A stretch of DNA of 64,000 bases from Romanomermis culicivorax (Eukaryota; Nematoda; Enoplea; Mermithida; Mermithidae): NCBI GenBank assembly GCA_963922205.1, contig CAWUHX010000043.1:1-64000 (forward strand), in the 5' to 3' direction. The notes under the pieces were generated by a model. The model worked only from the letters and a program-made list of their open reading frames with translations, had not been told where the DNA came from and did not search any database. This document shows, piece after piece, positions 4,745 through 55,912 of this stretch. Both the position numbers and the translations under genes were made by a program. The first letter of the stretch is position 1. Each line of letters begins with the position of its first letter.

Positions 4745-4748
4745 TGAT

Positions 4749-5637
4749 TGTAACGTACCTGCTAAAGCAGTACTGTAAATATGTAGCATACTGTATGTGA
4801 TAGACATTTATTAGATATTATTTTATTTTCTTATTTTATGGTCTCAAGGATGTCTGGGATTCACACCCAAACATTCCTACAAAATTACGTGAAGTACTTT
4901 ATTTTGATCCGTTCACACCCCGGTAGCCCAATTAAGATGCCCTAATTAATTTGCACAAACGGCAGCTGTTCCCCTAGAACCTACACTAAACTACACATTC
5001 CACAGCTACCGTAATCCCCCGTAAAAATCGTAAACAACACCTGCACACAGTAAAATACGTAGAAGCCCCGCCATACAGTAGTCTCAAGTGTAACGGTAGC
5101 GGCGGCCCCACAAAACATGTGTATACAGAGAAACCGATACAGGAGGCATGCACAGAAGTACAAAGGTGTGGCCAAGCCCACCGTAGAAAGCAAGCGAAGC
5201 ACAGAAAGCATACAGTACCAGAAAAGCATTAGAGAGGCGTAATTAAGAAAGCATAAAAAGCGTGGCAGGAAACGACGATTGGCGGAAGAAGATGGACAGA
5301 AGCTCGACCTCCGCGACGCCCAGGGAGTGGCCAAAATCGCTTTATAAAAGAAGAAGCAAAGCGTGATTTGATCATTCTTATTCTTGTGGTTTTACGTTTT
5401 TTTGACTTCCGCGCTCGCCCTGTCCTTTTTATACATTTGCAAGCGGCCGACTATCCGAAAGCAACTTAAACCGAGGCCCCCGTTCGTATTATAAATCGAA
5501 ACACGTTTTATTGTCGACGTTCAAGCGACCGTCGATCATCCATTGTTATTGTAACCGTACCGCCCGCGCCCCCATTGTTCCCGCTGTATCGACCGTTGGT
5601 TTAAAGTAAAGTACCTCACACAAATCTGGTCCTTACA
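4749..5637 (+). repeat. 5' LTR of element 1
   Basis: 889 bp, from TGTAACGTACC to GGTCCTTACA, with TG...CA ends. It is nearly identical to 13177-14067, with only scattered differences by eye, implying a fairly recent insertion. It carries a TATA box. The long antisense ORF across it is not a gene. Confidence 0.95.
5343..5349 (+). promoter_or_regulatory. Probable TATA box in the LTR
   Basis: TATAAAA, preserved as TATAAAA at 13773-13779 in the 3' LTR although the bases before it differ. It lies about 290 bp before the LTR end, where a U3 promoter is expected. Confidence 0.6.
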
Positions 5638-5642
5638 TATTT

Positions 5643-5656
5643 TGGTGACTGTACCC
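5643..5656 (+). other. Candidate primer-binding site
   Basis: TGGTGACTGTACCC starts five bases after the LTR end and begins with TGG, as expected for a site complementary to a tRNA 3' CCA end. I could not assign the tRNA. Confidence 0.45.
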
Positions 5657-5763
5657 TTACGTTAACCACTGGAACTCCCTGCCCCCAATTAGGTGTACTC
5701 TTATCCGGGCATTTAGAAGCATTAGATAATACAGTAGTAATCATTTCCTACAGTAAGACAGTA

Positions 5764-7112
5764 TTGGTAGAAAGCAAACTGGAAATCCCCTCCAATGAGA
5801 CATTAAGCGATACATTTAAACGAATACAGCGTGAAGCAAAAATTGAAGCATTTAAGCAGAAATCCCAACGCAAACAAAGAATGACCCACCAAACGCAAGA
5901 TCATTTAGGAGAAATCGTTAGAGAGCAGATAAACGATTTATTTTCAGAACATTTTCGTACCCTACGCACACAATTGAATCAGAATACAGTAAACCCTACC
6001 CTAATAGACGATCTAAGAACAGCAAACATTCGTAATAACATGACAAATAATTTTTACGCGAAACCTACAGTATTCACGGGCGGCGTGACCCAACATTTTG
6101 GTGAATGGAACAAAAGATTAGAACAATTCATGGCACTCCAAGGCATGAAAGATACAGATGTACAGTTAAAGTTAGCATGTTTAGAAATTCATTTAGGAGG
6201 AGCCGCGTTAGCAAAATTCAAAAGTTTAGCCAATTCTGAAAACCCTCCCCACACATATGAGCAGTATAAAGTCGCATTACAGGCATTTTTCCCAAACAAT
6301 AGAGATAATGAGCTACATCAACAATTCTTACGCGAAAGAAAACAAAAGCCTTCAGAAACAGTAACAGAATTCTTATTTGATCTAGAACATCTCGCAACCC
6401 TCGCCTACCCTAACTTTAACACAGACGCACGAGAAATGATCATAAAACCCCTCTTTGTAGAAGGCATGCAAAACGAAATCAGGGAAGCAATTAAGTATAG
6501 AAGGTTCGCGACTCTAAAAGAAATGTCAAATGAAGCAGCTTACATTGAACAGCAAATTCTTAGAAATGAGTTAAAATCTAACGTCCTTCCCTTCATACCC
6601 CCAAAGCCCGAACCCATCTTTTCCCTAACCAAAAATACAGATCAACAGGACCTTTTGTAAAAGATTTACAGTTGCAGATCAAACAAAAACCTCAACCCCC
6701 ACAACAGAGTAGCTACAACAATTTCAGTAACAATACTTTCAGCAGGAATAATGCTTACAGGAACAATACCACCCCTAGGCAACCCACATGCTTCCAGTGT
6801 GGACAAATCAGACACATAGCTCGTAATTGTAAATCAGTAGGTACCCAAAAATCATGTGAAATCTGTTTCGGTAATAATCACAGTACACGTGATTGTGAAA
6901 GTTAATGCATCCACTGCTCCCAAACAGGACATAGATCAGATAACTGCCTTTCAAAACCCTACTCCAATTTCCAATGTTTCATATGCAAGCAGAGAGGTCA
7001 TACAAGCAGATATTGTCCAAATCAGCAAAGTCGTAATATTCAAAACTGCATTGAGTATAGGCAACCCCAACCCCTCATGGACATTGACGACCCCGCATTT
7101 TACTCAAAATAA
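5764..7112 (+). pseudogene. gag: Gag of element 1: capsid plus four zinc knuckles, broken
   Basis: Structural polyprotein of the retroelement. An open frame runs to 6660 with a retrotransposon-gag capsid domain, recognisable by its WNKRLEQFMALQG and IIKPLFVEGMQ segments, which are matched in Gag of element 2. The frame is open back to the LTR but has no ATG before 5881, so the true start may be lost. A -1 frame change between about 6582 and 6657 is needed to enter the nucleocapsid. There, CX2CX4HX4C knuckles lie at about 6790 and 6856; a TAA at 6903-6905 follows, and two further intact knuckles continue in the same frame (from 6906 and from about 6978) before TAA at 7110-7112. Four knuckles is a high number for this class. 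I saw no canonical slippery heptamer, so the frame change is more likely decay than programmed. Confidence 0.85.
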
Positions 7113-7622
7113 CCCGCCATAACTAACGGCCCTCAGACTACTTTAGGAACAATCATGTCCAACACCCACCGCCGTAGTGACAAATATGTCCTTGATCTGG
7201 ACGTACCCGATTGGTGCGCCATGTCACCACTCCCCACGCCTGAAGCTGCAAAAATCGGAAAATCGCTGCCCACCATCCCCGTAGGCTACAAGATCCCCCG
7301 AAAGCAAGACACTATGCCGCCCACCGCCCCTGAAACCCCGTCGAAAACAGGCCGCAACTTGTTATCCCTTCTCCATGGCCTGACCCCCAAACCCTACCAA
7401 TTTCGCCCCCGCCAAACACTACTACCAACCCCCGCAAGTAAACAAGTCCAAACCCCATCCCATAACTCAACTTCTAAAGTTTTACAGAATGTTCAGATTT
7501 CAAACCGGCCACCCCCTCAGCTCAAAATTGCAAAATGACAACACCAAAAGCCTCAACACCAAACCGGCCACAACGAAAACATATAGTGCCCCGCCGCCTC
7601 CACTAAAACATTCTATTGGCCG
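7113..7622 (+). pseudogene. Proline-rich spacer between Gag and Env
   Basis: In frame with the zinc knuckles before it and the glycoprotein after it; open from 7113 to TGA at 7536-7538, with another in-frame TAG at about 7584. The 7155-7538 part encodes a basic, proline- and threonine-rich segment (for example MPPTAPETPSKTGRN) without a recognised domain. In element 2 the same position holds a longer acidic N-terminal region continuous with the glycoprotein, so this is probably a decayed leader domain of the Env precursor or a Gag-Env linker. No function is proposed. Confidence 0.55.
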
Positions 7623-9506
7623 ATGTTTTGTATTTTTCTTTGTATAATAATCCCCACATCGTGTAGTGCCCAATTTCAGATGTGTGGAACTTCATTGAGC
7701 GGTCACTCAGTCAGCATACCAAAACTTGTATCATGCATGCCCCCTTCCATAGTAGACAAACCCATACAGACATTCGGAAAAATCTATATCCCCTCCACTA
7801 AGCCCCACATTACAGACGCATACAAATGCAGTGTTCGCGAACGCAAAATTTGTACTAATACAGGATTTTTTGAATCAAAAGGTATTGTATTCGACCAAAC
7901 TGAAATGCAAAATCTAACCCCACATGTTTGTAAGGCAGTCGTTATAGACAAAGAACACAACGGTCAAAAATTATACGAAACCCAACCAGGATTTTGGTCA
8001 ACAAACAACTCCCTAAGCATAGAATACACATGGTGTTGTACAGACCATTGTACCTCGGTCACTAATGTCATCATAGAAATAGGACAAATAGCATCTTGGA
8101 ATGGAAAATCTATGACAGGTACATTAGGTGACCTGGGGTCATGCAAACCGACATCAGGTCATTGTGTTACAGCCGACGGATCCATTATCTGGAATGAAAC
8201 AGCATTTGAAAACTTATGCCCCTTCGAATACAAAAACACACATCCCATCAAACTCACACAAACCCACATGATAATAGAAGAACTACAAGGTGCATTCTCG
8301 GTTAAAAATACAGTTTTTTCGAATCCCAATTGCCCAGAAATCCAAGACCGCATTCTAACCGAACAAGGCATTATCGTACAATTAGACAAAAGCACCCCAC
8401 ATCGTAACGCATTTTTAACCCCAAAAACCAACGAAACTCATACTACACTATACGATTTTGATGATTTTGAACCCATCAATGCAAAACTAAACTATCTAGC
8501 AGACAAAATACAGGAATTCGAAATTCAAAATTTCAAAAACGTATGGAATGAATTATGCAGACAGGCACAGCGTCACCTTGATCTCGTATGGCAAATTTTG
8601 CGTCTTGATGCAACCCTTGGAGCGCGTGCATTCCTACAGCGAACCGACATCATAGCAGAATTCACAAGAGAAGCCCTCACAGTCTGGCCCTGCAAGCAGG
8701 TAAACGCATCCAAAGTCTTTTACAACCACAAAATCAACCAAACATGCTACAAACTTTTGCCCATTCTCGTAGGAACCGAACTCATGTTTTCAAATCCAGG
8801 AGGCAACGATTTGACCCCTTTTTCACAAACCGTTGACTGCCATCACATGCATGTAGCCCTTTACAAACAGAATAATACATGGGTCAGTGAGACAGGATCC
8901 CCGCATGTCACAAATTTACCTTTAGAAATCGTCTGGAACCAAAATTTCTCCCTTTTCCATTTTAATACACCCACCATTTTTCATGATCAACTTGCAACTA
9001 TTTCAACCAACTTACTCTTTTTGAAACAATACATTTACAAAACTCACACACTGGAAAACGTTGTCCAAAAACTTGTCAATTACACCGCCCAAATGTCTCT
9101 CAATTCTGATACAGTTTACAATATGATCTCAGGCACTGGCAAAGCACTCGGAAATACCCTCTCTGGCACCGGTCAAGGCATAGAACATGTAATAACCGGT
9201 ACCACCCAAAGTCTCACGGACGAATTAAACAATTTACTCAAAGGACCCCTGCAAATCATTATAAATCTAGCCGTTATTACTGTAGTTCTTGCAGGCGTCT
9301 TTTATTCGTTTCTCGTTCTTCGAAAATATTTCCCCTCCCCAAAGCATCAGGTCACACATGAACATGCATACGAAATACCATCGAACAACAGACATTCATA
9401 TGAGACCATACCCCCATCATTCGGCCATGCTCTCCTAGAATTAGCCAATCGTCGTGGGGCACAAACACAGCAGAAATACGTCCTTGTCGATATTGATACC
9501 CCCTGA
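7623..9506 (+). CDS. env: Envelope-like transmembrane glycoprotein (intact ORF)
   Basis: Uninterrupted 627-residue ORF from ATG to TGA. The first 16 or 17 residues form a hydrophobic signal peptide ending SCSA. The ectodomain is rich in cysteine (including a WCC pair and CXXXC spacings) and has at least nine N-X-S/T sites. A Gly/Ser/Thr-rich region at about 500-540 leads into one membrane helix at about 545-568, followed by a tail of about 59 residues. This is the layout of a type I viral surface glycoprotein, which would mediate attachment and fusion. Element 2 encodes a divergent homologue sharing ICT-TGFF-SKG, GFWST, WCC and GQIAS-NG motifs. I cannot name the source virus family; capture from a negative-strand RNA virus or an older retroelement env are both open. 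The TGA is followed in the same frame by pol. It is the only uninterrupted major gene of the element. Confidence 0.8.
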   Translation: MFCIFLCIIIPTSCSAQFQMCGTSLSGHSVSIPKLVSCMPPSIVDKPIQTFGKIYIPSTKPHITDAYKCSVRERKICTNTGFFESKGIVFDQTEMQNLTPHVCKAVVIDKEHNGQKLYETQPGFWSTNNSLSIEYTWCCTDHCTSVTNVIIEIGQIASWNGKSMTGTLGDLGSCKPTSGHCVTADGSIIWNETAFENLCPFEYKNTHPIKLTQTHMIIEELQGAFSVKNTVFSNPNCPEIQDRILTEQGIIVQLDKSTPHRNAFLTPKTNETHTTLYDFDDFEPINAKLNYLADKIQEFEIQNFKNVWNELCRQAQRHLDLVWQILRLDATLGARAFLQRTDIIAEFTREALTVWPCKQVNASKVFYNHKINQTCYKLLPILVGTELMFSNPGGNDLTPFSQTVDCHHMHVALYKQNNTWVSETGSPHVTNLPLEIVWNQNFSLFHFNTPTIFHDQLATISTNLLFLKQYIYKTHTLENVVQKLVNYTAQMSLNSDTVYNMISGTGKALGNTLSGTGQGIEHVITGTTQSLTDELNNLLKGPLQIIINLAVITVVLAGVFYSFLVLRKYFPSPKHQVTHEHAYEIPSNNRHSYETIPPSFGHALLELANRRGAQTQQKYVLVDIDTP

Positions 9507-12500
9507 ACTCCAGCAATCGAACTCATTAATCAAATTCACCAATCTGCATCAAATAAGCCACCCCAGAATGTACCTGAAAAACATACCCCTCACATCCTGA
9601 TTACACTTAACGGCAAATTAATCACAAAAGGCATGATTGACACTGGTGCAGTCTACTCACTCATTGATTCCCGAGTCCCGCAACTTTTACAATTAGACAT
9701 GAAACCCCCCCTAGTCCAAGCAAAAGCAGCAAATAATCTCCCGATTCACTTTGTAGGAACCACTTTTGTCACAGTGACAGCCCAAACAATCCAGGAAACG
9801 ATAATGGTGCATGTCCAAAAAGATTGCACAGCAGACATCCTTCTAGGCAAAAACTTTCTTAGTCGATTTTCGGAATATACTATCAACAATCAGAAATCTC
9901 AGGTCAAATTTGGCAATGTCATACTACCTTGTGACGGCCTAGAATACAGCCCACTTTCGACCCGTGGTGGAACTTATCTAGACGAGAAATTAGAATTGCC
10001 ACCCCGTACAGTAACCAAATTTACTGTCCCCTTGCCCAAATCGTACCTACAAGTTAAACAGCTCGAATTTACTCCGAAACCCAAGCAGAATCCCAAAGTC
10101 CATTTCGCAGCTTGTATCTCGGAAAATCAAAACAATCGCATACGCATATCCGTCCTGAACACACAAGAAACAGCCCAAATTCTTTATCCTGGAACATGCA
10201 TTGGTACAGTCTCATGTTACATCCCAAAACAAAATGCTCCCGCTAATCTAACCCCTTCAACGCAAAACCAACCCAACCGTTTTGATACATTCACATGGTT
10301 AAAAGAAAATGTTAATTTAACCTCCAGTGACCTCACAGAAACCGAGAAAATGCAACTCCTACGCCCCCTATCAAAGTATCCCACATTATATGCTAAATCC
10401 AAAATGGACGTAGGCAGAACCACCCTCGTTTCACATACAATTGACACCAATGGCTCCCAACCCATACGTAGACAACTTTATCGGACTTCCCCAAAAGAAA
10501 AGCAAATCATACAAGCAGAAGTTGAGCAACTAGCAGCAGCAGGTGTCATAAGCCAAAGCAATTCTCCATGGTGTACCAATACAGTTTTAGTCCCCAAAAA
10601 AGACGGAGGCCATCGTCTATGCATTGATTTTCGAGGCCGCAACAAAGTCACCAAAAAAGATACCTACCCCTTGCCCCGTATAGACGAAATTCTAGACACC
10701 CTACGTGGAATGAAATATTTTACGTCCCTTGACCAATCCAATGCATATTATTCAATTCCTATAGCACAAGCAGACAGAGAAAAAAACGGCCTTTAATTGT
10801 TCAGCCGGCCAGTATCAATTCAATTACCTCCCCTTTGGTCTTACCAATGCCCCAGCCACATTCCAAAGGTTAATGGATGTTATTCTTTCGGGTCTGCAAT
10901 GGAACACATGCCTTGTATATCTCGACGATGTTTTGGTATTCGCAGACTCCCATGCCCAAATGCTGGAACCTTTAGACACTATTCTTGCCCGATTCTCACA
11001 AGCAGGCCTTAAACTAAACATACAAAAATGCAAATTCTGCCAGCCCCAAGTCCAATACTTAGGCCACGTCATTTCTCAGCAAGGCATTTCACCAGATCCC
11101 CATAAGGTACAAGCCATTTAGGACATACCCACACCCAAAAGCTCAAAAGAAGTTAAGTCATTCCTTGGCCTACCCTCATATTATCGCAGATTCATTTAAA
11201 TTGCTCTCAAGTTTCTAGCCCACTCACATCGCTACTCAAAAAGAACTCAGAATTTTCCTGGGGCCCCCGAACAGCAAAACGCATTCACCAAGCTAAAAGA
11301 ATTACTCATTCATGCCCCAATACTGCAGCACCCCAATTTCACAAAACCGTTTATTCTGCAAACCGACGCCTCAAAACTCGGAATCGGCGCCATTCTCAGT
11401 CAGCTAGATAGTAAAGGTCAGGATCGCCCCATTGCTTTTGGGAGCCGCACATTGAAACCCGCAGAACGCAACTATCCGATCACTGAGTTGGAAACCCTTG
11501 CAGTAGTCGAATTTGTCAAGTATTTCCGCCCCTATCTTTTCCAGCAACACGTTATTGTACACACTGACCACACAGAAGTTCACGCAGTCCTACAAAAGGA
11601 AAACCCGTCCCCTCACATTGCCCGTTGGGGATTAGCCCTCTCTGGTATCCAGTTAGACATTCGACCCAAGAAAGGCACTGCTAACCGCAATGCAGATGCA
11701 GTTTCACAATTCCCCTCACAGACAGCAAAGCAATCCTTTGACATTGAGCAACTCGAAACCCACCCCCAAATATCCACTATCAATTCGATTTTGGAAGCTG
11801 AAGCAACTGAACAAGAAGAGCAACAGAAAAACTTTGCCAAACTCCAACGCACTGACCCAACTGTCAAAAGTATTTTAGCAAAAATCGCCCAAAAACACCC
11901 CCTTACTCTGATCAAATTCGCAGTGCATCAAAACATTCTCTTCCGTATAGTCGACAAACAGGCAAAACTATACATTCCCAAGTCGCAAGTCCAGCATCTC
12001 ATAGCCTCACATCATGACAGCAAGTTCACAGGGCATTTTGCGGCCCGGAAAACTTTACACTTGCTCAGACAGAAATATTTTTGGCCCCAAATGAGCCGTG
12101 ATATCAAACGGTACTGCAAAACTTGTCACCCATGCCAGACACAGAAAGCCCTCCGACACAAGGTGCATGCAAATTTGGTACCAATTCAGCACACAGAAAG
12201 CCCTCCGACACAAGGTGCATGCAAATTTGGTACCAATTCAGCCGATTGGCCCATTTGATAGAGTTGGTGTTGATTGCATGGGACCGTTACCCCTCACAGA
12301 AGACGGCAACCGATTCATTGTCGTTTTCATCGATTATTTCACAAAGTATGTAGAGGCATTCCCGACCCCTGACATCACTGCAGCCACTATTGCCAAGCTA
12401 TTCGTAACCAAAATTGTTTGCCGTCATGGGTCCCCAAAAATCATCCATTGTGATCGTGGCACCCATTTTGTATCCGATCTTTTCTCACGGATCACCAGTT

Positions 12501-13145
12501 TATGCAATACTCAGAAAATTCACACTACCCCATATCATCCCATTGCCAATGGGGAAGTTGAGCATTGCAACCAAACCTTAGCCACCCGTATCCGCATGTA
12601 CATCAATTTAAATCACACCGATTGGGATACTTATCTCCCATATGCTGTTTTTTCGATCAACATTCATAAAAATGATAGCACTTCGTATCCCCCATTTGAA
12701 CTACTCCACGGTAGGCAAGCTAATCTGCCGTCAGATGCAGCCTTAAACTTTTTCCCCACGTCCTACATGGTTGACCTAGACGATTACGCCCTCCGTGTAA
12801 AATCGCATTTTACAGAAGCACTCTCAACCGTGCAGAACAGTTTTACAAAAAGCCCAAGCCCACTATACCCGTCAGTATAACAAGGATGCTCAGAACATAC
12901 ATTACAAGGCAGGTGATCTTATTCTTTACAAAAATCATTCGTGTAAACAAGGGCTGACTCCCAAATTCCTCCCTCGCCAAAATGGGCCCTATACAGTTAC
13001 AAATTTCATGTACCCCAATGTTACACTTAAACACCCCCATAAGAATATTACATTTACGGTGCATGTCAACGAGACAACCCCTTTCTACCCTCGGAAAGCA
13101 ACTATCGAATCTACCCCCACCCCTCCTCAACCTCGAAAGCCTTGA
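9507..13145 (+). pseudogene. pol: Pol of element 1: protease, RT, RNase H, integrase, broken
   Basis: Enzymatic polyprotein. In frame directly after the Env stop: aspartic protease with IDTGA at about 9636-9650; reverse transcriptase with KKDGG and IDFRG motifs, then YLDD at 10918-10929; RNase H with ILQTDAS at about 11355; an integrase zinc-binding region with CX2C at about 12121-12138; an integrase core with catalytic Asp at 12272 and 12452 and Glu at 12560 (35 residues apart); and a GPYTV (GPY/F) motif at about 12985, typical of Ty3/Gypsy. Breaks: a frameshift at the A-run near 10783-10789, stops TAG 11119-11121 and TAA about 11198, a frameshift near 11260, a 52-bp tandem duplication at 12139-12242, and a frameshift near 12850. 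All catalytic motifs seen are intact, so the damage is recent or partly sequencing error in homopolymers. Confidence 0.92.
12139..12242 (+). repeat. 52-bp tandem duplication inside integrase
   Basis: The stretch starting ACACAGAAAGCCCTCCGAC occurs twice in a row with a period of 52 bases. Because 52 is not a multiple of three, it shifts the frame between the integrase zinc-binding domain and the catalytic core. Confidence 0.9.
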
Positions 13146-13163
13146 ACGAGGACGTTCAACTCC

Positions 13164-13176
13164 GGAAGGAGGGAAA
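13164..13176 (+). other. Polypurine tract
   Basis: GGAAGGAGGGAAA directly before the 3' LTR TG; the expected primer site for plus-strand DNA synthesis. Confidence 0.75.
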
Positions 13177-14067
13177 TGTAATGTACCTGCTAAAGCAGTA
13201 CTGTAAATATGTAGCATACTGTATGTAATAGACATTTATTAGATATTATTTTATTTTCACATTTTATCGTCTCAAGGATGTCTGGGATTCACACCCAAAC
13301 ATTCCTACAAAATTACTTGAAGTACTTTATTTTGATCCGTTCACACCCCGGTAGCCCAATTAAGATGCCCTAATTAATTTGCACAAACGGCAGCTGTTCC
13401 CCCAGAACCTACACTAAACTACACATTCCACAGCTACCGTAATCCCCCGTAAAAATCGTAAACAACACCTGCACACAGTAAAATATGTAGAAGCCCCCGC
13501 CGTACAGTAGTCTCAAGTGTAACGGTAGCGGCGGCCCCACAAAACATGTGTATACAGAGAAACCGATACAGGAGGCATGCACAGAAGTACAAAGGTGTGG
13601 CCAAGCCCACCGTAGAAAGCAAGCGAAGCACAGAAAGCATACAGTACCAGAAAAGCATTAGAGAGGCGTAATTAAGAAAGCATAAAAAGCGTGGCAGGAA
13701 ACGACGATTGGCGGAAGAAGATGGACAGAAGCTCGACCTCCCGCGACGCCCAGGGAGTGGCCAAAATCGCCGTATAAAAGAAGAAGCAAAGCGTGATTTG
13801 ATCATTCTTATTCTTGTGGTTTTACGTTTTTTTGACTTCCGCGCTCGCCCCGTCCTTTTTATACATTTGCAAGCGGCGGACTATCCGAAAGCAACTTAAA
13901 CCGAGGCCCCCTTTCGTATTATAAATCGAAACGCGTTTTATTGTTGATGTTCAAGCAACCGTCGATCATCCGTTGTTATTGTAACCTTACCGCCCGCGCC
14001 CCCATTGTTCCCGCCGTATCGACCGTTGGTTGAAAGTAAAGTACCTCACACAAATCTGGTCGTTACA
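13177..14067 (+). repeat. 3' LTR of element 1
   Basis: 891 bp, TGTAATGTACC to GGTCGTTACA, pairing with 4749-5637. Followed by the target duplication TGAT. Confidence 0.95.
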
Positions 14068-14173
14068 TGATCATTGTTATTCTTTGTTTGATTGAATACG
14101 TATTCAAAACGATTGATCATTCAAACAGAATTCGCTCGCGTTCTAGACAAATAAAAGTAGTATTAGAAGACTG

Positions 14174-32333: not shown

Positions 32334-32407
32334 TGCTCGGTGAGGGGCTCGAACCCTCAGCCTTCCGCATACAAGGCAGATGCACTACCAACTATGCTAA
32401 CCGAGCC
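32334..32407 (-). repeat. tRNA-Thr-like unit 1 of a 250-bp tandem repeat
   Basis: 74 nt. Acceptor stem pairs at six of seven positions, A-box TAGCATAGTTGG, anticodon stem TCTGC/GCGGA with loop CTTGTAT (anticodon TGT), B-box GGTTCGAGCCC with paired stem. It could be a functional tRNA-Thr(UGU) or the head of a SINE. The homologous unit 250 bp away argues for a repeat. Confidence 0.6.
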
Positions 32408-32583
32408 ACGTGAATGGTTTGGAAATTGTGGTTGTAGTGGTGGTGGTGAGTGCGGGGCATGCCCCGTAATGAATAGCCAAATGCACCACTACAACACCCC
32501 TCCCCCCTTCGAGGAGGAAGGGCCCTGGATGATCACCAATGTCGTATGTCCAAATCCACGTAGCTGGCGTGTCAGAAAAATAA

Positions 32584-32657
32584 TGCTCAGTGAGGGGCTC
32601 GAATCCTCGATCTTCTGCATACAAGGCAGACGTGCTACCAACTGCACTAAGGAAGCC
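32584..32657 (-). repeat. tRNA-Thr-like unit 2
   Basis: Same tRNA region with the same anticodon loop, but the acceptor stem no longer pairs (GGAAGCC strand against TGCTCAG). Spacer to unit 1 is well conserved, giving a 250-bp period. The next spacer is interrupted at 32696 and continues at 37423. Confidence 0.65.
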
Positions 32658-46420: not shown

Positions 46421-46826
46421 TAAGGCCTGAGGTTAAATGTGATAAGTAAAAAATTAATCATACCCCAAAAAACATATTTTGTACAGTTCTTTGCGCCGAA
46501 CAACATGCCAGTATTTGTTTGATCGAAAAATCCAAATTCCTTTTGTCCTCAATCAATCCACATCCACATCAATCCACATCAATCCAAAGGTTCAAATTTT
46601 TTGCAATTTTTGAAATTTTAGGTCACAATCTTTGAAAGCCTATAGGTAATCAGGTATGCAATGTTGATCAATAAAACTTTGTCAGCAAAGGTAACAATGT
46701 TTAGTGTATATGCATGACACATACAGATATATGTAGCATCAAAATTATGGTTTACACCACACTTTAAATTCAAATTTTCAGCAGTTATCAATGACTCAAA
46801 TTCACACATTTTTGCACCCCATAAAG
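46421..46826. other. No gene; flank of LTR element 2
   Basis: AT-rich. CCACATCAATCCACATCAAT at about 46559 is a short tandem repeat. Ends with the target duplication AAAG (46823-46826). Confidence 0.4.
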
Positions 46827-47288
46827 TGTCACAGCCCAAGCTCCACTTGTGACTCGGGTTCTTGTCAAAAGACAAATTCTAATGGCAAGTCCTAAATGAC
46901 TTACTTTTTATTGACCAGGAAATAATAATAAACAATACCAAACTGATTTACAGAAGATAACACAGGCTTATATACAAAAAAGTAGCATGACTTTACAGCT
47001 GAATGTGATTAAAAAAAATACATCAAGCACAAATTAGGCCAAGCCTCAAGCATAGAAATATTGCTTATAATACTGATGAAACATACGAGTAGAATATGTT
47101 TCACTTCACTACTTATTAAGATTACTGTACCTGTGATACACGATAGAACAAAACTAGATACAGAATATACTGTAGGAACACTAAAACGGTTGATATCCTA
47201 ACTGGGTTACAAAAATACCAAATCAAGTGATACGGAAACAAAGTACATAGTACAAAAAAATGATAAGTCAACAGGGTTCCTCTTGACA
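46827..47288 (-). repeat. 3' LTR of element 2
   Basis: 462 bp, TGTCAAGAGG to GGGCTGTGACA on the minus strand. Pairs with 55449-55912. Confidence 0.95.
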
Positions 47289-47303
47289 CGCCACTCCTTA
47301 AGG

Positions 47304-50300
47304 TCAAACGTCTTCATTTGTCATGTTGTTCTCATCATCTGATTCTTCAACATTTGGATCAATTCCATGTATGATCTTGGGACTTGATGGCTCATTATTG
47401 CTTTGATCCCTAGTTGATGGTTTCAGATATAGTTTTGTTCGATTGGTGTGCACCACTTCTGTCACTGATGGATCATTGACCAATTCCATTACAATATTTG
47501 GACTGACAATTTGACTATTTTTTATGGTCCTTGGTACAGATGCATCAGCTTCTTTATTAATCCTTTTCTTACTACTTGTGACTCTTTCAATACCCAATCT
47601 CCTACTTGGTATTTGGCATTACTTGTTTTTCTATCATATTGACTCTTATATCTATCTTGTGAACTTTCAATTTGCCTCTGAACCACATTCAGTGCTTCCA
47701 TGAAATGTTTCTTTACATCATGCTCATAGTCCAATATGTCTACCATGTATGGTGGTGGACTATAATTCAATGCTGCATCTATAGGTAGAGCCGCAAATCT
47801 GCCAAAAATCAACTCAAATGGAGTAAAACCTGTGGTTTCATTCACATGAGTGTTGGCTGCAAACTTAGCAAGGGGAACATGTAAGTCCCAGTCCAACTGA
47901 TTACTGTCCACATACATTCGAATTCTGACCATTAGAGTTTGATTCATTCTTTCTACCTCACCATTTGCCATTGAGTGATAAGGTGTAGTATGCAACTTTC
48001 TAGTGTTACATAGCTCTGTTATTTTTGTCATCAGCTTTGACACAAAATCTGACCCTCTGTCAGACTGTAATATTTTAGGACATCCATGCCTACATACAAT
48101 TTCATTTATAAACAGCTCTGCTGTTGTCTGTACTGTTATATTTTCCGTGGCAAAGGCTTCCACATACTTTGTAAAATAATCGACAAATACCACAATGAAT
48201 CTGTTTCCTCTTTGAGTCAATGGAAGTGGTCCCATACAATCAACTCTAATCCTCTCAAAAGGCCCTGAAACCTTTATGGGTTTCAACTCAGCCACAATCT
48301 TTTTCCTATCTGCCTTATTTATCTGACATGATTTACATTCATTACAAAATTTCAAAATATCTTTTCTCATGTCTGACCGATAGTATTTATTGCTAATATT
48401 TTCTAGGGTTTTTCTAGGACTGTAATGACCTGCTAGAGGATCATGATGATAAGATTGCAATATTAGCAATACCAAGCTTTCTGGTACCATAATTTTTCTA
48501 ATGCCATCACAAAATTTACATAATATCCCTTCTTCTATGATAAATTCCTCTGCATTCCTAGAATTTTCATCATTTATATTTAAAAAAATTGCTTGAAGTT
48601 TCTTATCTAACCTTTGTATGCTTTTTAGCTCTATCTTGTTTCCTTTGTCTGCCATTATTACTGTAACTTTTCTATCAGCTACACAATTTTCCTCAATATC
48701 AAAATAAACTTTTGCCTTAGTATTGGGCAATCTTGATAAACAATCAGCATTTTGATTTTGACTGCCCTTCCTTGGCTTTATGATTAGCTTATATCCTACC
48801 AGTGCTAAGCCCCATCTAGCAATTCTCGAAGACAGGTTAGCCTTCTGTAATACAGCTTTCACTGCTATGTGATCAGTTTCCACTATCACTTCATGTTCAT
48901 ACAAATATGGTCTAAAATATTTTACGAATTCTACCACTGCTAATGTCTCTAACTCAGTTATTGGGTAGTTTCGTTCTGCTTTCTGCAATATAGGACTAGT
49001 ATACTCTACAGGGTATTCATTCCCATCACAATCTAACTGACACAGAACTGTGCCAATGCCTTCAATGGATGCATCTGTTTGTAAAACAAATGGTTGACTG
49101 AAATCAGGGTGTTTCAGTAGTGGAGGCATTATGAGTTTCGCCTTCAGCTGTTCAAAAGCTGTCTGACACTCAGCTGTCCATTCGAACTTCACATTTTTCT
49201 TAAGCAAACCAATTAAGGGTTGCATGATTTTCGCACAATTTAAAATAAATTTCCTGTAATATGAAACTAATCCCAAAAATAATTTTGTTTCCTTTACATT
49301 TCATGGTGCTTTCATTTCTGCCACAGCTTCTAACTTTTTGCTATCAGGTAAAATACCTTTTTCTGAAATACGGTACCCAAGATATTCTGTGTCTAGATAG
49401 CTAAATTTGCATTTACTCAACTTTAGCTTCATATTCCCTGAACTCAAACGATCCAGTAAGTCTTTTAATTTGTTCTAGCATTTGTTGATGATTCTTCGCA
49501 AAAACAAAAATATCATTCAGATACACTAAGCATGTTTGCCATTGCAAACCTGACAAAAGAACATCCATTAGCCTTTGAAATGAAGGGGGAGCATTACATA
49601 GTCCAAAAGGTAAGTAATTGAACTCAAATAATCCTATTAGGGTTGAAAATGCTGTTTTTTCTTTATCTGCCTCTGCTATTGGGATTGACCAATAAGCATT
49701 TGCCTGGTCTAATGTCGTGAAGTATCTCATATCTTTTAAAGTATCTAGAATATCATCAATTTGAGGAAGAGGATAAACATCTTTAACATCTTTCTTGGTC
49801 ACCTCATTTAACCCTGGAAAATCAATGCACATTCTATGTTTTCCATCTTTCTTTCTGGCCAATACTACATTAGTTGACCATGGAGATATGCTTGGTCGAA
49901 TTACTTTATTCTCTAACAAATTTTTTACCTCTTCTATCACAATCTCCTTTTCTTTGGGTGATGTCCGATATGGCATCTTCCTGACTGGCCTACTATCACT
50001 TGTTACAATTTTATTCTCTACCAAATTAGTTCTTCCCATGTCTTTCTCATTTGCCGCATATAAATCTGGATATTGACACAAGAGGTTTACAATCTCCCTC
50101 TTCTCCCTCAGTGAAAGGTGGCCACCTATATTTGCATTTTGTTCTATCCATTCTTGGTGATTAACAAAGTTACCCGCATATCTAGCTTCTACATCTTGAT
50201 CATACTGACTATCATATACTTTTATGTGTCTGATCATTTGACCTTTATACAATTTTACATCAAAATTATTGGCATTCATTAGCTGTAGAGGGATCAGCGG

Positions 50301-50969
50301 ATTATGAACCTTACTAACAGATCTTGCAAAATGTGCTTTGTCTAATGCATTAGGTTCAAATATGACCGCAGCAGTATTGCCTTTAATTTCTGACACATAT
50401 CTTTGCACAGTTTGTACAGATCTAGCTGGTATGCATGTATCAACATTTAACACAACAGTGTCTCTATTTATTTGTGGATTATATACCATTCCATAACAAT
50501 CAATTCTTTCCTTATTGAAGATCACTGTTGAGTCTGCCCAATTAAATTGAACATTTTTGAATCTATTCAGAAAATTTGTGCCCAGAATGACATCAGCCAA
50601 ACATTTCTTCTCTATGTACATGTTTACAGTCTCTGTTACATCTCCACATCTGACTGTTAAGAAGGCACAACCTTCCACTGGTATGTGAGTACCATTAGCT
50701 GCAATTTGTTTCAGTGTTGTTTCAATAATTTTCACTCCTGGCAACCTGCTCATGATATCATCATCGATCAATGAAAAAACTGCTCCTGTGTCGATCAATG
50801 CACTAGCTTTCAAGTTATCATTGATGATTATTGTTACATGAGGAGTTCTCAGACATCTGGTTGAACCAACTAGCATTACAGCACCACTATTTTCTATGTC
50901 TTTACTGGTGGAAGCAAGTTCTGTCAACTCTACTTCCCTTTGATCATCATTTATTTTGGATGTAGTTCT
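47304..50969 (-). pseudogene. pol: Pol of element 2: protease, RT, RNase H, integrase, broken
   Basis: Starts in frame right after the Env stop TAG (50970-50972). Protease with ALIDTGAVFSLID; RT with RKKDGKHRMCIDF; the YXDD box is YLND (49512-49523), so the first catalytic Asp is Asn and the RT should be dead. A frameshift near 49440 and a TGA near 49306 separate RT from the next frame, 47522-49276. That holds the RNase H (VLQTDAS) and integrase: zinc-binding CX2C, core with VDCMG, SDRGSD and NGEVE, spacing D-X35-E intact. The GPY/F tail is cut because the codon after Gly-Pro is TAA; an overlapping frame at 47304-47597 carries the remaining tail. Same family as pol of element 1. Confidence 0.92.
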
Positions 50970-53557
50970 CTAATTTCTTCTTTCCTGTCTATCTCTAATT
51001 TGGCTTAAGCTTAACAATGCATTTCCAAAGCTTTCCCGTAAGCTTTGTGCATGATTTAAATTTATGTTTGGTAAATATGAGCCACTGTTCTGGCATCTAT
51101 TAATGATTACCAAGTATAATATGAATCCAATGATTATCAAAACTAATGCAACAACAAGTGCATTGAAAATCAATTGAATTTGTCCCTTCAGTAAAGTATT
51201 CAATCCTTCTTTCATATTCTGCCTCTCTGCATTAATTACATGTTCTAGCGCTGATCCTGCGCCTATGGCACTTTTTTCTGTGCCAGCATCTATCCCAGAG
51301 AGTGTCTCATACAAAGTACCTGGCTGTAGTGACATATCTGCCTCATAATTCACTACATTTTTAACTATCCCTTCCATTTCTTTCATTTTGTGTACATAAT
51401 GCTTTAAAGATGAAAATGTCATTGGCAAATTTCCTAGTTGATCATGAAATATTGCTAGACTGTTGAACCGAAAAAGTTTTGTCTGTCTTTTCCAAATTAG
51501 TTCTATCGGAATCGTACTAACAATGTAATGAATGAATCGTATGAATTAAAATTAAAAAATTATTAAAATTAAAACAATGAATCGTACCTGTTTTTGTTTT
51601 AAAACCTGCCCTATCCTTAAAAATTCCTGCCATTTGATGATGACAGTCTATTACTGGACTATCTTTTATCAAGTCTACTGTACCGGGTACTACAAACAAA
51701 AGTTTACTATCAAAATGCACTGGCAAATATTTATAACACACATTACCAACTTTATAGGTGTCATAAATTTTACTTATGTTTACTTGCTGACAGGGCCATA
51801 CTGTCAAAACTTCTCCTGTGAATTCTGTTGTTATATCATTCCACTGCAATAGTGCTCTGACACCTAAGGTTGCATCTACATGTATGAATTAAATGTAGAT
51901 ACCATATTAAATCTAGATACCTTTGTACATGATGGCACAGTTCCATCCATGTTTGTCGGAAATTATCATTTTCTAACCCAATTATTTTGTATTCCAAATA
52001 GTTTAGTTTCACATTTGTCGCATCATAATCACTAACATTTTCTGACAGTCCCATTGAATAGGGTTTCCGGGTTACTTTGTATTTCTTCCCATGTATTTTC
52101 ACGACTATTCCCTGGCTTGTCTACAGAACATTTGTGAACTGATCTTGGCAGTAGGGGTAGGGATCCTTCAACTTCAAAGCTGCCTGTAACTCATCAACTA
52201 TCACATGCTCGTTGTTCAATATTGATGTGTATTTTCCTTTGTAGACTACTAGGCATACGGCCTGAAACTCGGCAGCATCCCATAGGATTACACCATCGCG
52301 TGCTTCGCAGATGCCATCAATGGCACGGCAGCCGCCCAAATCATCAAGGTCAGTACTAATGTTGTTTCCATTGAATGAGGCTATCTGTCCTTCCTCAATC
52401 ATGAAATTCCTAACATCCTGACATGCTTCTGCACAACACCATTTGTAGTTCACCTCAAGTGACTTGTATGTACTCCAAAATCCTTCAGAGATTTCAATGA
52501 GTTTTTCATTTCCATAGTTCTTTGTTCGGAAAGCTGTTTCACAAGCTCCTTTGCTGATTGACTCAATCAATGTCTCATCATTCAAAACCCCTTTTGAACC
52601 AAAGAATCCAGTGAAAGTGCAAATCTTCCTATTTATGACAAAACATTTGTATGCTTTTGCTTGCAGAGGTTCAGTTCTTGGAACATAAATACTCACATCT
52701 ACCCAAAATGGTCTTCTTTCCTCTTTCATAGGAGGCTTGCATTCGACTGTCTTAGGAATGTCCCAAGCATGACCACTCTTAGACACACCACAGATTTGAT
52801 ATCCAAAGCATTTTTTATTTAAACAAAATATGATGATTGCTAGAACTATCATCACTAATCTTTTAGGCTTCTTTGCCCATAACACTGCCTGTAAAAATAC
52901 AATACAAGTCCATACAAGTAAATATATGACATTTAGTATCATCTTTTTACTTATTAATGTCGGGTCTTCTTGCTCATCTTCGCCTCTTTCCTCCTCTGAG
53001 CTGGAACTTTCCTCGATCCTCACACCTTTCATTGTTTTGCATCTTTTAATTGATCCCTCGCTGGGCATCACTTTCCCCTTGCTTGGTATGAAGCTCCATG
53101 AGCTCCTCATCATTGGCTCTGGCTCATCATCATGTACTGGACAATGTGCATTGCAAATGCACACTTTTCTTCCTGCATGTAAATAGTTAATTTCTCTTCT
53201 TACTGTTCTGCTATCATGGTCATCAAAATCACGTTTACCTTTAGCAAAATATTTACTCATCCAATCTTCTTGTTGACGCTTATCATTCAAGTCAACTGCT
53301 TTCGCTTTCTCATATTTTTCAACAAATTCTTCCAAATTAAAATCAATAACTTCCACGTCATCATCATTCATTTCTATTGTATCTGTCCTACTGTATTTAC
53401 CAAAGCTTCCTGGTACAAAACCTAGTAGTTTAATTTCTGGCTCACCTTGGGGATAGGGTTTGTAGTCCAGCAGCCATTTACCTCCATTCTGGGCCCAACT
53501 AATTTCCATATCATTGAACCGCTCTATCAGCTCCTCCAGATTAGTGAACAATCCCAA
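50970..53557 (-). pseudogene. env: Env precursor of element 2, broken into several frames
   Basis: Frame 52121-53557 (478 residues) has an acidic N-terminal region of about 200 residues with a cysteine cluster (KVCICNAHCPVHDD) and a Ser/Glu stretch, then two hydrophobic helices (VIYLLVWTCIVFLQAVL and VMIVLAIIIFCL) separated by a KKPKR loop, then the ectodomain with motifs shared with element 1 Env (ICGVSKSGH, ICTFTGFFGSKG, YKWCC). Pieces at 51836-52102, 51517-51849 and 50970-51428 continue it, the last with the Gly-rich segment, membrane helix LIFNALVVALVLIIIGF and tail. Breaks include a TGAATCGTA-type microduplication near 51530-51590. It begins overlapping the zinc-knuckle frame by 31 bases. 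Element 1 lacks the long leader. Confidence 0.8.
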
Positions 53558-55020
53558 TGCCTCTTTAGGGGCAAGGGCAAGTCGGGCACCTCTTCATTGG
53601 GCTCGTGGTCTCCAACAATTGTGTAGGAGTAGAGTGGTTTGACCTCACGGAACTCATCCTCACTCCCACTGTCTGCATCTATAACAAAACATTCATGAGA
53701 AATTTTCTTTACTTCTGATCCTTGCTTAACTAACAGTTCATCATCACAGTCTAACTGACTAACATTAACTCTGTGCTGCAGTCTATTAAACTGTTGTTGT
53801 TGCTGTTGTCTTTCTCTACCTATTGTCGTATCGTGCCTCATTTTATTAAACTTAACATGCCTCTTTGAAAAGGAATCCTTACTTCCTTTTTGCCACTTTC
53901 GGGCTGGAGGTTGGCCATTATCCTTTCCTGGGCACGACCTGGCTATAAGGCCCAATTGGCCACATGCATAACAATAGTGCGTCTTGCATGCCCCTGTAGC
54001 ATGGCCAGTGCTGCGGCAACATCCACACCTTCTCACATCTTCCTCTTTGGTCAGCATTTGACGGAGATCTCTAATCTCTTGTTTGATATCTTCCATAGCA
54101 CTTTCTGAAATATTTGCAGAAATAGCATTTTGTCATGGTATAACCTGTAAATCCTCTCTAAAAAGTTGTGATTCAGCAACCTAGCTGCTTTAGCTGCTTC
54201 TGTCAATGGTGGAAAATCCCTGTATTTCAGCCCTTCGTAAATGTTTGACTGAAGACCCCTGATAAAAATTGGTTTGAGGATCAAGTCCCTAGCATCCTTT
54301 TTTAATGTAGGGTATGCTGACCTAGACATTTTTCTCAATTTATCCAGGTACTCCATTACACTTTCTGCCCATTTTTGTTTTGTGTCATAGATGAGCTGCT
54401 GGTGGACTTCACTATCACGACCCTCTGGGTACATTTCTTTCAATCCTGCAAGTAACCCATCATATGTGCTTTGAATACTGGGATCCTTTCTTAACTCATG
54501 GAATGATGCCAATGCACTTCCAATCAGGTTAGATTCCAAAAATGCAACCTTGTAAGTATTATCAAAATTGCTTATTCCTTGCAGAGTCATAACCTGCTGC
54601 AATCTATCTACCCAATCACTCAATGATTCTCCAAAAGAACATGAAAAAGGTACTGGTGGCCTGAATGCCATCATTGAATTAAACCTCATTAGGGAATTTC
54701 TTAACCCTAAATTCTGAGTATCTTGACTCTGTTCAACTTTCAAACTCAACTGCTCTAGCCTATCTGCTATAGGAGCAGCAGTGTTCTCAAAAGCTTGCTT
54801 AACTGTCCATTCCAAAGCTTTTGCTTCTTCTACCATATCTCTAGTGTTACTTCTTGTCTGTCTGGGGGGTGCTTAGTTCAAGCTTTGCCTGGCCCATTAT
54901 GTTCTGAAATTCTTCAGAAACTGAAGACTGTCTACCTTTGGATAATGAATCCAGATTATCCAAATCTAGCTTGAAAGGACTTAGTAATAACTCAGAAGTG
55001 CTTAACTCAAGCTTACTTCA
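53527..55020 (-). pseudogene. gag: Gag of element 2: capsid and zinc knuckles, broken
   Basis: Capsid frame 54051-54836 (261 residues, ATG at 54836) contains WVDRLQQVMTLQGI and LILKPIFIRGLQSNI, matching Gag of element 1. Coding-like sequence continues upstream on the minus strand to about 55020 in another frame (SEEFQNIMGQAKLEL), so the real start is earlier. The nucleocapsid frame 53527-54096 follows in the -1 frame with zinc knuckles CGCCRSTGHATGAC and CYACGQLGLIARSC (the second has Leu in the His-flanking position). The coding frame appears to change near 54180, before the overlap, so I read this as decay and not programmed frameshifting. Confidence 0.82.
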
Positions 55021-55448
55021 ACCTATGTATCTGCCTTCTGACAAATCTGATGACTATATTTAGTCAACTGAGCATACACTTGCTCAAATTTGTCTATCAA
55101 GTACTGTCCTTAAGTGAGACTTATCACTTCACTTGACTCAAGAGCACTCAAAGGCTCAAATCTATCTGACGAGTTCAGTGTTGCGTGACTAACTTAACCC
55201 ACCAGGTAACCAACCCTTTACGTTGTGAGAAGTTCCTTGAAGCCACTTAATCTAACTTCTGACTAACTGTCCTGTTCCTTGGACACTTGCAATCTGACTT
55301 TTGTCTCAGACCCTTTGGTCAATGATTAACACCAAGCTTCATCAACCTTCAAACTTAATCTACCTTTTCAGACACTCAGGTCCCAAAAGCAATCTGTTAT
55401 CTGACTTTGGAATTCCTTCCTTTGCTTTCCCAGATGACCCCCTAAATT
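55021..55448 (-). other. Leader of LTR element 2
   Basis: Between the 5' LTR and Gag. Contains repeated CTTAAGCACTTCTGAG-like words and many stops. Right after the LTR, on the minus strand, TAGGGGGTCATCTGGGA resembles a tRNA-Pro-type primer-binding site, but with mismatches; low confidence. Confidence 0.4.
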
Positions 55449-55912
55449 TGTCACAGCCCAAGCTCCACTTGTGACTCGGGTTCTTGCCAAAAGACAAATT
55501 CTAATGGCAATTCCTAAATGACTTACTTTTTATTGACCAGGAAATAATAATAAACAATACCAAACTGATTTACAGAAGATAACACAGGCTTATATGCAAA
55601 AAAAAGTAGCAGGACTTTACAGCTGAACGAAATTAAAAAAAATACATCAAGCACAAATTAGGCCAAGCCCCAAGCATAGAAATATTGCTGATAATACTGA
55701 TGAAACATACGAGTGGAATATGTTTCACTTCACTACTTATTAAGATTACTGTACCTGTGATACAGGATAAAACAAAACTAGATACAGAATATACTGTAGG
55801 AACACTAAAATGGTTGATATCCTAACTGGGTTACAAAAATACCAAATCAAGTGATATGGAAACAAAGTACATAGTACAAAAATATGATAAGTCAACAGGG
55901 TTCCTCTTGACA
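55449..55912 (-). repeat. 5' LTR of element 2
   Basis: 464 bp with TG...CA ends. On the minus strand it has CATATAAG (55589-55596), a possible TATA box, and AATAAA (55529-55534), a polyadenylation signal. Confidence 0.95.

What the first reader, a model, noticed from the sequence alone, without database searches (positions are those of the whole stretch)
4749..14067. Retroelement with envelope gene between gag and pol
In element 1 the glycoprotein (7623-9506) lies after Gag (5764-7112) and before protease/RT/integrase (9507-13145). Retroviruses and errantiviruses place env after pol. Intact LTRs and target duplication exclude a chimeric rearrangement across element ends.
Basis: seen in the sequence. 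Interest (0 to 1): 0.9.

Follow-up and report, generated by a model that had tools for sequence, protein, structure and literature searches.

The report
Retroelement with envelope inside polyprotein
A mosquito-parasitic worm's genome carries many copies of virus-like mobile elements that encode their envelope protein in the middle of one long Gag-Envelope-Pol reading frame, instead of after Pol, its usual place.

Summary
Confirmed, and stronger than reported. Element 1 (4749-14067) is a Ty3/Gypsy-type LTR element of Romanomermis culicivorax with the order gag-env-protease-RT-RNaseH-integrase. The window copy is decayed (frameshifts, an env|pol stop). Relatives are not: of 69 scored env copies, 45 lie in an open frame of at least 2400 aa. 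Six copies fetched whole, picked for long frames, each carry gag, env and pol in ONE frame, with LTR pairs differing by 0-2 bases and 4-bp target duplications. A second element in the window has the same order. In 8 of 8 divergent families fetched, env lies directly before protease-RT; a gag-type CCHC region was recognised before it in 5 of 8. Two database proteins from unnamed sources are also Env-protease-RT. Eight families and six database proteins form one RT clade (100/100). Env matches Pfam Monjiviricetes_fusion (chuvirus-type) and is under strong purifying selection. Hydrophobic segments flank it, so one chain would put Env in the ER lumen and Gag and Pol in the cytosol. I infer flavivirus-like expression from one polyprotein; a spliced env mRNA is the main rival, and no RNA data were available. 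One clade member (P0131) lacks the env ectodomain. I saw no report of this order in ten literature searches.

The parts
4745..4748 (.). target-site duplication TGAT, left copy (right copy 14068-14071)
   Evidence: 6 of 6 relatives fetched whole also show 4-bp duplications
4749..5637 (+). 5' LTR of element 1
5643..5655 (+). probable primer-binding site (TGG after a short spacer); the tRNA was not identified
   Evidence: same place in the 6 relatives, one base apart in letters or spacing
5881..6957 (+). gag: capsid-like 5881-6660, then frameshift, CCHC region in 6657-6956
6958..7607 (+). gag-env linker, no Pfam family above cut-off; open in one frame with gag and env in the 6 relatives fetched whole
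7608..7664 (+). hydrophobic stretch at the start of env (signal peptide, inferred); position transferred from L031
7623..9506 (+). env: Monjiviricetes-type fusion glycoprotein, 627 aa, ending in a stop in this copy
   Evidence: 7e-17
9255..9311 (+). env transmembrane segment (inferred from hydrophobicity); position transferred from L031
9507..10136 (+). aspartyl protease region, directly after the env stop and in the same frame
10137..11118 (+). reverse transcriptase, broken by a frameshift
11122..11847 (+). RNase H
11848..13145 (+). integrase (zinc-binding and core domains), with frameshifts and a 52-bp duplication in this copy
13164..13176 (+). polypurine tract
   Evidence: the 36 bases before the 3' LTR are identical in the window copy and 6 relatives
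13177..14067 (+). 3' LTR of element 1
55437..55912 (-). 5' LTR of element 2 (95.8% identical to its 3' LTR over 476 columns)
53527..54869 (-). element 2 gag and CCHC region
50973..52948 (-). element 2 env, broken into several frames, homologous to element 1 env
47522..50966 (-). element 2 protease-RT-RNaseH-integrase, starting right after env
46816..47288 (-). 3' LTR of element 2

Best explanation
This is one member of a lineage of env-carrying Ty3/Gypsy (Metaviridae-type) elements whose ancestor took up a chuvirus-type fusion glycoprotein between Gag and protease, in frame. The full-length RNA is translated into one Gag-Env-Pol polyprotein. Gag is made in the cytosol. The internal signal peptide threads Env into the ER lumen, and the transmembrane segment near the Env C-terminus brings the chain back to the cytosol for the cytoplasmic tail, protease, RT, RNase H and integrase. 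Signal peptidase and the element's own protease then release the parts. This is the layout of flavivirus C-prM-E-NS (recalled) applied to a retroelement. Shown: gene order, single frame, recent insertions, purifying selection on env, two flanking hydrophobic segments, one RT clade. Inferred: a single capture, translation as one chain, ER threading, the cleavages, and a role of Env in leaving or entering cells.
For: Order and family. Single frame: of 69 scored copies 45 have an open frame of at least 2400 aa (one of these with a stop inside the env match) and 67 at least 1200 aa. In 6 of 6 copies fetched whole (picked for long frames) gag, linker, env, PR, RT, RH and IN are all in one frame, with LTR pairs differing by 0-2 of 878-906 bases and 4-bp duplications. 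Not one-off: 40 of 40 scored hits of a linker-only query are followed by env; in 8 of 8 fetched divergent families env is followed by PR and RT, and 5 of 8 have one uninterrupted frame over the fetched 5.2-5.3 kb. Outside the assembly: P0135 and P0137, of unnamed source, are Env-PR-RT fused in frame. Clade of 15 rows, 100/100. Selection: env dN/dS 0.089-0.149 between the window copy and 6 young copies; pN/pS 0.058 among the young ones, against gag 0.040 and PR-RT 0.077. Topology: at the threshold used, the only hydrophobic stretches of the frame flank env in 6 of 6 copies. No strict splice acceptor between positions 2203 and 5338 in 6 of 6 copies.
Against: No RNA or protein data. Splice sites were judged only by a crude consensus of my own: a donor-like site lies in the 5' leader of all 6 copies, and a TTTYAG motif lies in the CCHC region in 5 of 6. 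In 3 of 8 other families (L041, L045, L047) an acceptor-like site lies within 250 bases upstream of env; the density of such sites predicts about 2 of 8 by chance. The window copy has a stop between env and pol. Gag is usually made in excess over Pol (recalled), and a single frame offers no obvious way. P0131, inside the clade, lacks the env ectodomain. Gag was not recognised before env in L041, L043 and L046. L043 and L046 have one extra hydrophobic stretch in the gag tail, L040 a second at the env start. No structure of Env could be obtained.
Confidence: 0.65

Rival explanations
1. Env is made from its own cis- or trans-spliced mRNA, as in retroviruses, while the open frame through env serves only so that the full-length RNA can still encode Pol.
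For: Donor-like site in the 5' leader of 6 of 6 copies and a TTTYAG motif in the CCHC region of 5 of 6; acceptor-like sites within 250 bases upstream of env in 3 of 8 other families, about chance level. Env has an ATG next to the signal peptide. Nematodes use trans-splicing (recalled). Cer1 of C. elegans makes a spliced cerv mRNA from an element without a stop between gag and pol (passages of PMC10309623).
Against: No strict-consensus acceptor between position 2203 and 5338 in 6 of 6 copies. It does not explain why the frame stays open from upstream of env into pol in 5 of 8 divergent families. Even then Pol would be translated through Env.
Confidence: 0.28
2. Env is removed as an in-frame alternative intron, so that spliced RNA gives Gag-Pol and unspliced RNA gives Gag-Env-Pol.
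For: The frame is continuous on both sides of env; P0131 shows that a clade member can lack the env ectodomain in frame.
Against: 40 of 40 scored linker hits keep env, so no retrocopy of such a spliced RNA was seen. The nearest strict acceptor after env, at 5339, lies inside the protease region.
Confidence: 0.04
3. Local rearrangement, nested insertion or assembly error placed a viral glycoprotein inside one element.
For: The window copy alone would allow it.
Against: 69 scored copies, 8 of 8 fetched divergent families, a second element in the window and two database proteins share env before pol.
Confidence: 0.01
4. Env is a passenger under no selection.
For: The window copy is decayed elsewhere, and P0131 lacks the ectodomain.
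Against: env dN/dS is 0.089-0.149 and pN/pS among young copies 0.058, like gag and PR-RT. Well-supported parts of the env and RT trees mostly agree.
Confidence: 0.02

Closest known systems
Anakin (BEL/Pao element with chuvirus glycoprotein, mosquitoes; PMC7642597: abstract, one results section and passages seen)
   Same: LTR element that captured a Jingchuvirales-type glycoprotein and spread it
   Different: BEL/Pao, not Ty3/Gypsy; the position of the glycoprotein is not stated in what I read and no Anakin sequence was compared
Atlas virus (BEL element of a hookworm; PMC9094657, passages seen)
   Same: nematode LTR element whose env is part of one long polyprotein without stops
   Different: order Gag-Pol-Env; phlebovirus-like class II Env; Belpaoviridae RT
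Errantivirus (gypsy, ZAM and others)
   Same: env-carrying Ty3/Gypsy elements
   Different: env after pol as a separate gene (recalled); Env thought to come from baculoviruses (passage of PMC13172572)
Jingchuvirales glycoprotein EVEs near Gypsy fragments in arthropods (PMC10084718: abstract, results and discussion read)
   Same: same glycoprotein type close to Gypsy sequences; two nematode EVEs mentioned
   Different: the authors found no clear evidence of capture by Gypsy; here the capture is plain
Flavivirus C-prM-E-NS polyprotein (recalled)
   Same: capsid protein, membrane glycoprotein, then enzymes in one membrane-threaded chain
   Different: unrelated proteins; resemblance of layout only

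Membership tests
Metaviridae / Ty3-Gypsy | LTRs TG...CA with 4-6 bp target duplication | tested here: met
   window copy and 6 of 6 relatives fetched whole, 4 bp
Metaviridae / Ty3-Gypsy | pol order protease-RT-RNaseH-integrase | tested here: met
   (shared with BEL and Troyka, PMC12440569)
Metaviridae / Ty3-Gypsy | RT closest to Ty3 | tested here: met
   4ol8 (Ty3) 2e-85, best match among solved structures; no BEL reference RT was compared
Errantivirus | env gene downstream of pol | tested here: not met
   31 bases between pol end and 3' LTR; env upstream of protease
Errantivirus | baculovirus-F-like Env | tested here: not met
   Env matches Monjiviricetes_fusion in 8 of 8 rows and no baculovirus F family at E 0.001
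Anakin / BEL-Pao | BEL/Pao gag-pol | tested here: not met
   gag matches Retrotrans_gag and Ty3_capsid, RT matches Ty3 best among solved structures; no Pao family among the Pfam matches
Chuvirus-type fusion glycoprotein | match to PF24664 above its cut-off | tested here: met
   7e-17, 61 bits against a cut-off of 27; 8 of 8 alignment rows at E 0.001
Chuvirus-type fusion glycoprotein | class III fusion fold | not testable with these tools
Jingchuvirales (virus itself) | RNA-dependent RNA polymerase and nucleoprotein genes | tested here: not met
   none among Pfam matches of the 10 pieces of element 1; one sub-cut-off RdRP_1 match falls on the RT

The most novel reading that the evidence does not exclude
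A genus-level lineage of enveloped retroelements, in a mermithid nematode and probably in the unnamed sources of two further proteins, expresses Gag, Env and Pol as one membrane-threaded polyprotein. It would be the first reverse-transcribing lineage known with env inside gag-pol, replacing spliced or 3' env expression by flavivirus-like processing, and it has recently been moving between insertion sites.
Probability: 0.55. Interest if true: 0.9.

Novelty: new variant of a known kind. Interest (0 to 1): 0.82.

Why it matters
Known enveloped retroviruses and retroelements put env last and often splice it (recalled; stated for simple retroviruses in PMC10309623 and for Roo, Tas and Cer-7 in PMC7642597, passages seen). 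A diverse clade with env inside the gag-pol frame shows that this order is not required. It raises a testable question about how Gag, a transmembrane protein and a cytosolic protease can come from one chain. It also shows plainly the capture of a chuvirus-type glycoprotein by Gypsy elements, which a 2023 survey of arthropod genomes considered and found no clear evidence for (PMC10084718).

Tried and rejected
Late-domain motifs: PTAP in 4 of 6 young copies and in none of the other families examined (7 of the 8; L041 left out), so not claimed. The protein search with env found one protein, P0001 of R. culicivorax. IMG/VR scans with one env and with an env alignment found no relative; records of the window's genome or near kin may be left out there. 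Solved structures: no sequence match for env at E 1. A DNA search with the start of the protease, meant to look for env-less copies from the pol side, did not complete (first tried, last). Element 2: no target duplication recognised by eye. Chary and Hayashi 2025 on env-carrying gypsy elements is cited in PMC13172572 but was not seen, so I cannot say whether it shows this order. The RT tree has no named Gypsy clades as references beyond the listed proteins, so the sister group is unknown.
Full report
Host. The window lies in an assembly of 359,112,060 bases and 595 contigs. These are the figures given for Romanomermis culicivorax v2 in Table 1 of PMC10879605 (passages seen). COX1 from the assembly is 97% identical to that of R. 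culicivorax and 84% to R. nielseni. The host is therefore this mermithid nematode, a parasite of mosquito larvae.

The observation. Element 1 has LTRs at 4749-5637 and 13177-14067, 97.2% identical, ending TG...CA and flanked by TGAT. Pfam finds, in order, Retrotrans_gag, a CCHC knuckle just under its cut-off, Monjiviricetes_fusion (7e-17), aspartyl protease, RVT_1, RNase H, and integrase zinc-binding and core domains. The last pol frame ends 31 bases before the 3' LTR. The copy is decayed: gag and pol are split by frameshifts, and a stop separates env from pol.

Second element in the window. On the minus strand, LTRs at 46816-47288 and 55437-55912 (95.8% identical) bound gag, env and pol in the same order. 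Its frames are broken. Pieces of its env and RT are 34-51% identical to those of element 1. No target duplication was recognised.

Other copies. A search with the element 1 env scored 69 places in the assembly, a lower bound because only the best candidates are scored. The matched frame is open for at least 1200 aa in 67 of 69, at least 2400 aa in 45 of 69 (one of these with a stop inside the env match), and exactly 2486 aa in 20 of 69. The window copy is one of the two short ones. I fetched six copies at full length, chosen for long frames and so a biased sample. In 6 of 6, a single frame of 2486 or 2506 aa runs between the LTRs. For L031 and L036, whose rows were printed, tblastn places gag, CCHC region, linker, env, protease, RT, RNase H and integrase in that one frame; for all six the five pieces of the frame translate without a stop. 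Their LTR pairs differ at 0, 1, 2, 0, 2 and 1 of 878-906 positions. Each has a 4-bp target duplication; five different sequences occur among the six. These are recent, separate insertions. Of the 30 short loci cut by the env search, 30 of 30 are collinear NC-linker-env-protease (13 of them held in reverse orientation) and 28 of 30 in one frame. A search with the linker alone, which does not itself favour env-bearing copies, scored 40 places (of 926 candidates). Of these, 35 are env copies (recounted), and the 5 others, fetched as L048-L052, also continue into env, L049 being cut near the env end. So 40 of 40 carry env next to the gag side.

Divergent families. The env C-terminus of element 2 scored 150 places, with identities falling in steps from 90% to 34% besides the query itself. 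I fetched one stretch from each of eight groups picked by identity; L040 belongs to element 2's own family. In 8 of 8 env is followed by protease and RT, and in 7 of 8 by RNase H; L046's stretch ends inside RT. In 5 of 8 (L040, L043, L045, L046, L047) the whole 5.2-5.3 kb is one open frame. The CCHC region before env was recognised by tblastn in 5 of 8 (L040, L042, L044, L045, L047), so for L041, L043 and L046 the gag side is not shown. L046 has about 1 kb of extra sequence between env and protease in the open frame, without a Pfam family above its cut-off.

Outside this assembly. An RT search listed the 120 best of 5676 proteins. Only 2 of 120 have an env-like match, P0135 and P0137, with no named source organism. 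In both, Env precedes protease and RT in one frame. P0131, also close by RT, has gag, about 300 aa of other sequence, then protease. It lacks the env ectodomain and has two barely hydrophobic stretches there, which I read as remnants after loss, with little evidence. P0134, P0139 and P0157 do not reach far enough upstream to tell. Of the 120, 107 covered enough of the RT, and 67 were kept after removing rows over 70% identical. A tree of 77 rows (these 67, P0157 and 9 rows of eight families from this assembly; L046 left out) gives one clade of 15, namely the 9 rows plus these 6 proteins, with SH-aLRT 100. A careful tree of 45 rows, with 30 of the 62 outside rows (two long branches dropped, then every second), gives 100/100 for the clade thus found. 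Among solved structures the RT is closest to Ty3. Env and RT trees of 11 and 10 rows agree on L040-L042 as a group and on L044 with L047; they differ in the order inside L040-L042, and deep branches are poorly resolved. This fits one capture followed by joint descent, but does not prove it.

Env. In 8 of 8 rows of the env alignment (seven families and P0001) PF24664 is matched, and in 5 of 8 also the bornavirus G family. Nineteen cysteines and nine N-glycosylation motifs were counted in one copy. Between the window copy and six young copies env dN/dS is 0.089-0.149, against gag 0.036-0.076 and PR-RT 0.052-0.082. Among the young copies pN/pS is 0.058 for env, 0.040 for gag and 0.077 for PR-RT (15 non-independent pairs). 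Env is kept by selection during replication.

Mechanism. In all six young copies the only two stretches above my hydrophobicity threshold in the whole frame lie at the env start and near its end. In 6 of 6 families tested, of 8 fetched, such a pair flanks env and none lies in the PR-RT-RNaseH part; L040 has two at the env start, and L043 and L046 have one more in the gag tail. A single chain would thus leave Gag and Pol in the cytosol and Env in the lumen. No strict splice acceptor lies between positions 2203 and 5338 in 6 of 6 copies. Against this, a donor-like site lies in the leader of all six, a TTTYAG motif lies in the CCHC region of five, and in 3 of 8 other families an acceptor-like site lies within 250 bases upstream of env, where about 2 of 8 are expected by chance. 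I therefore rate the polyprotein at 0.65 and a spliced env mRNA at 0.28. How Gag excess over Pol would be achieved is not explained.

Known or new. Anakin is a BEL/Pao element with a chuvirus glycoprotein (PMC7642597). Atlas virus is a nematode BEL element with a single Gag-Pol-Env polyprotein (PMC9094657). A 2023 survey saw Jingchuvirales glycoproteins near Gypsy fragments in insects but no clear capture (PMC10084718). In 19 ant genomes, 224 such glycoproteins form their own clade (PMC6540820, passages); whether any of these sit in elements like this one was not tested. In ten literature searches, among them 'gag-env-pol' with 'retrotransposon' (0 papers) and 'between gag and pol' with 'env' (33 papers, 20 listed), I saw no report of this order in the listings or in the passages I read; most listed papers were not opened. 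I file it as a new variant of a known kind.

Noticed in passing
window 46816-55912 (-): A second, divergent gag-env-pol element with 95.8% identical LTRs, broken frames and no recognised target duplication.
   Followed up: yes
window 12119-12222: A 52-bp tandem duplication (85% identical copies) inside the integrase region of element 1.
   Followed up: no
window 32334-32656 (-): Two tRNA-Thr genes (anticodon TGT) 250 bases apart.
   Followed up: no
L046: A family with a frame of 3018 aa has about 1 kb of extra sequence between env and protease, without a Pfam family above its cut-off.
   Followed up: partly
P0131 residues 332-637: A clade member without env ectodomain has two barely hydrophobic stretches between CCHC and protease, as if only the ectodomain had been lost.
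   Followed up: partly
P0134 residues 1-95: Sequence before the protease has a hydrophobic stretch but no match to this env in my search; a different membrane protein may occupy the same slot.
   Followed up: no
window versus L031-L036: Synonymous divergence is about twice as high in PR-RT as in gag and env, which suggests recombination between element lineages.
   Followed up: no
G000:C117:992573-993922: A COX1 readable with the mitochondrial code lies in a long contig of the assembly: nuclear copy or misjoined mitochondrial DNA.
   Followed up: no
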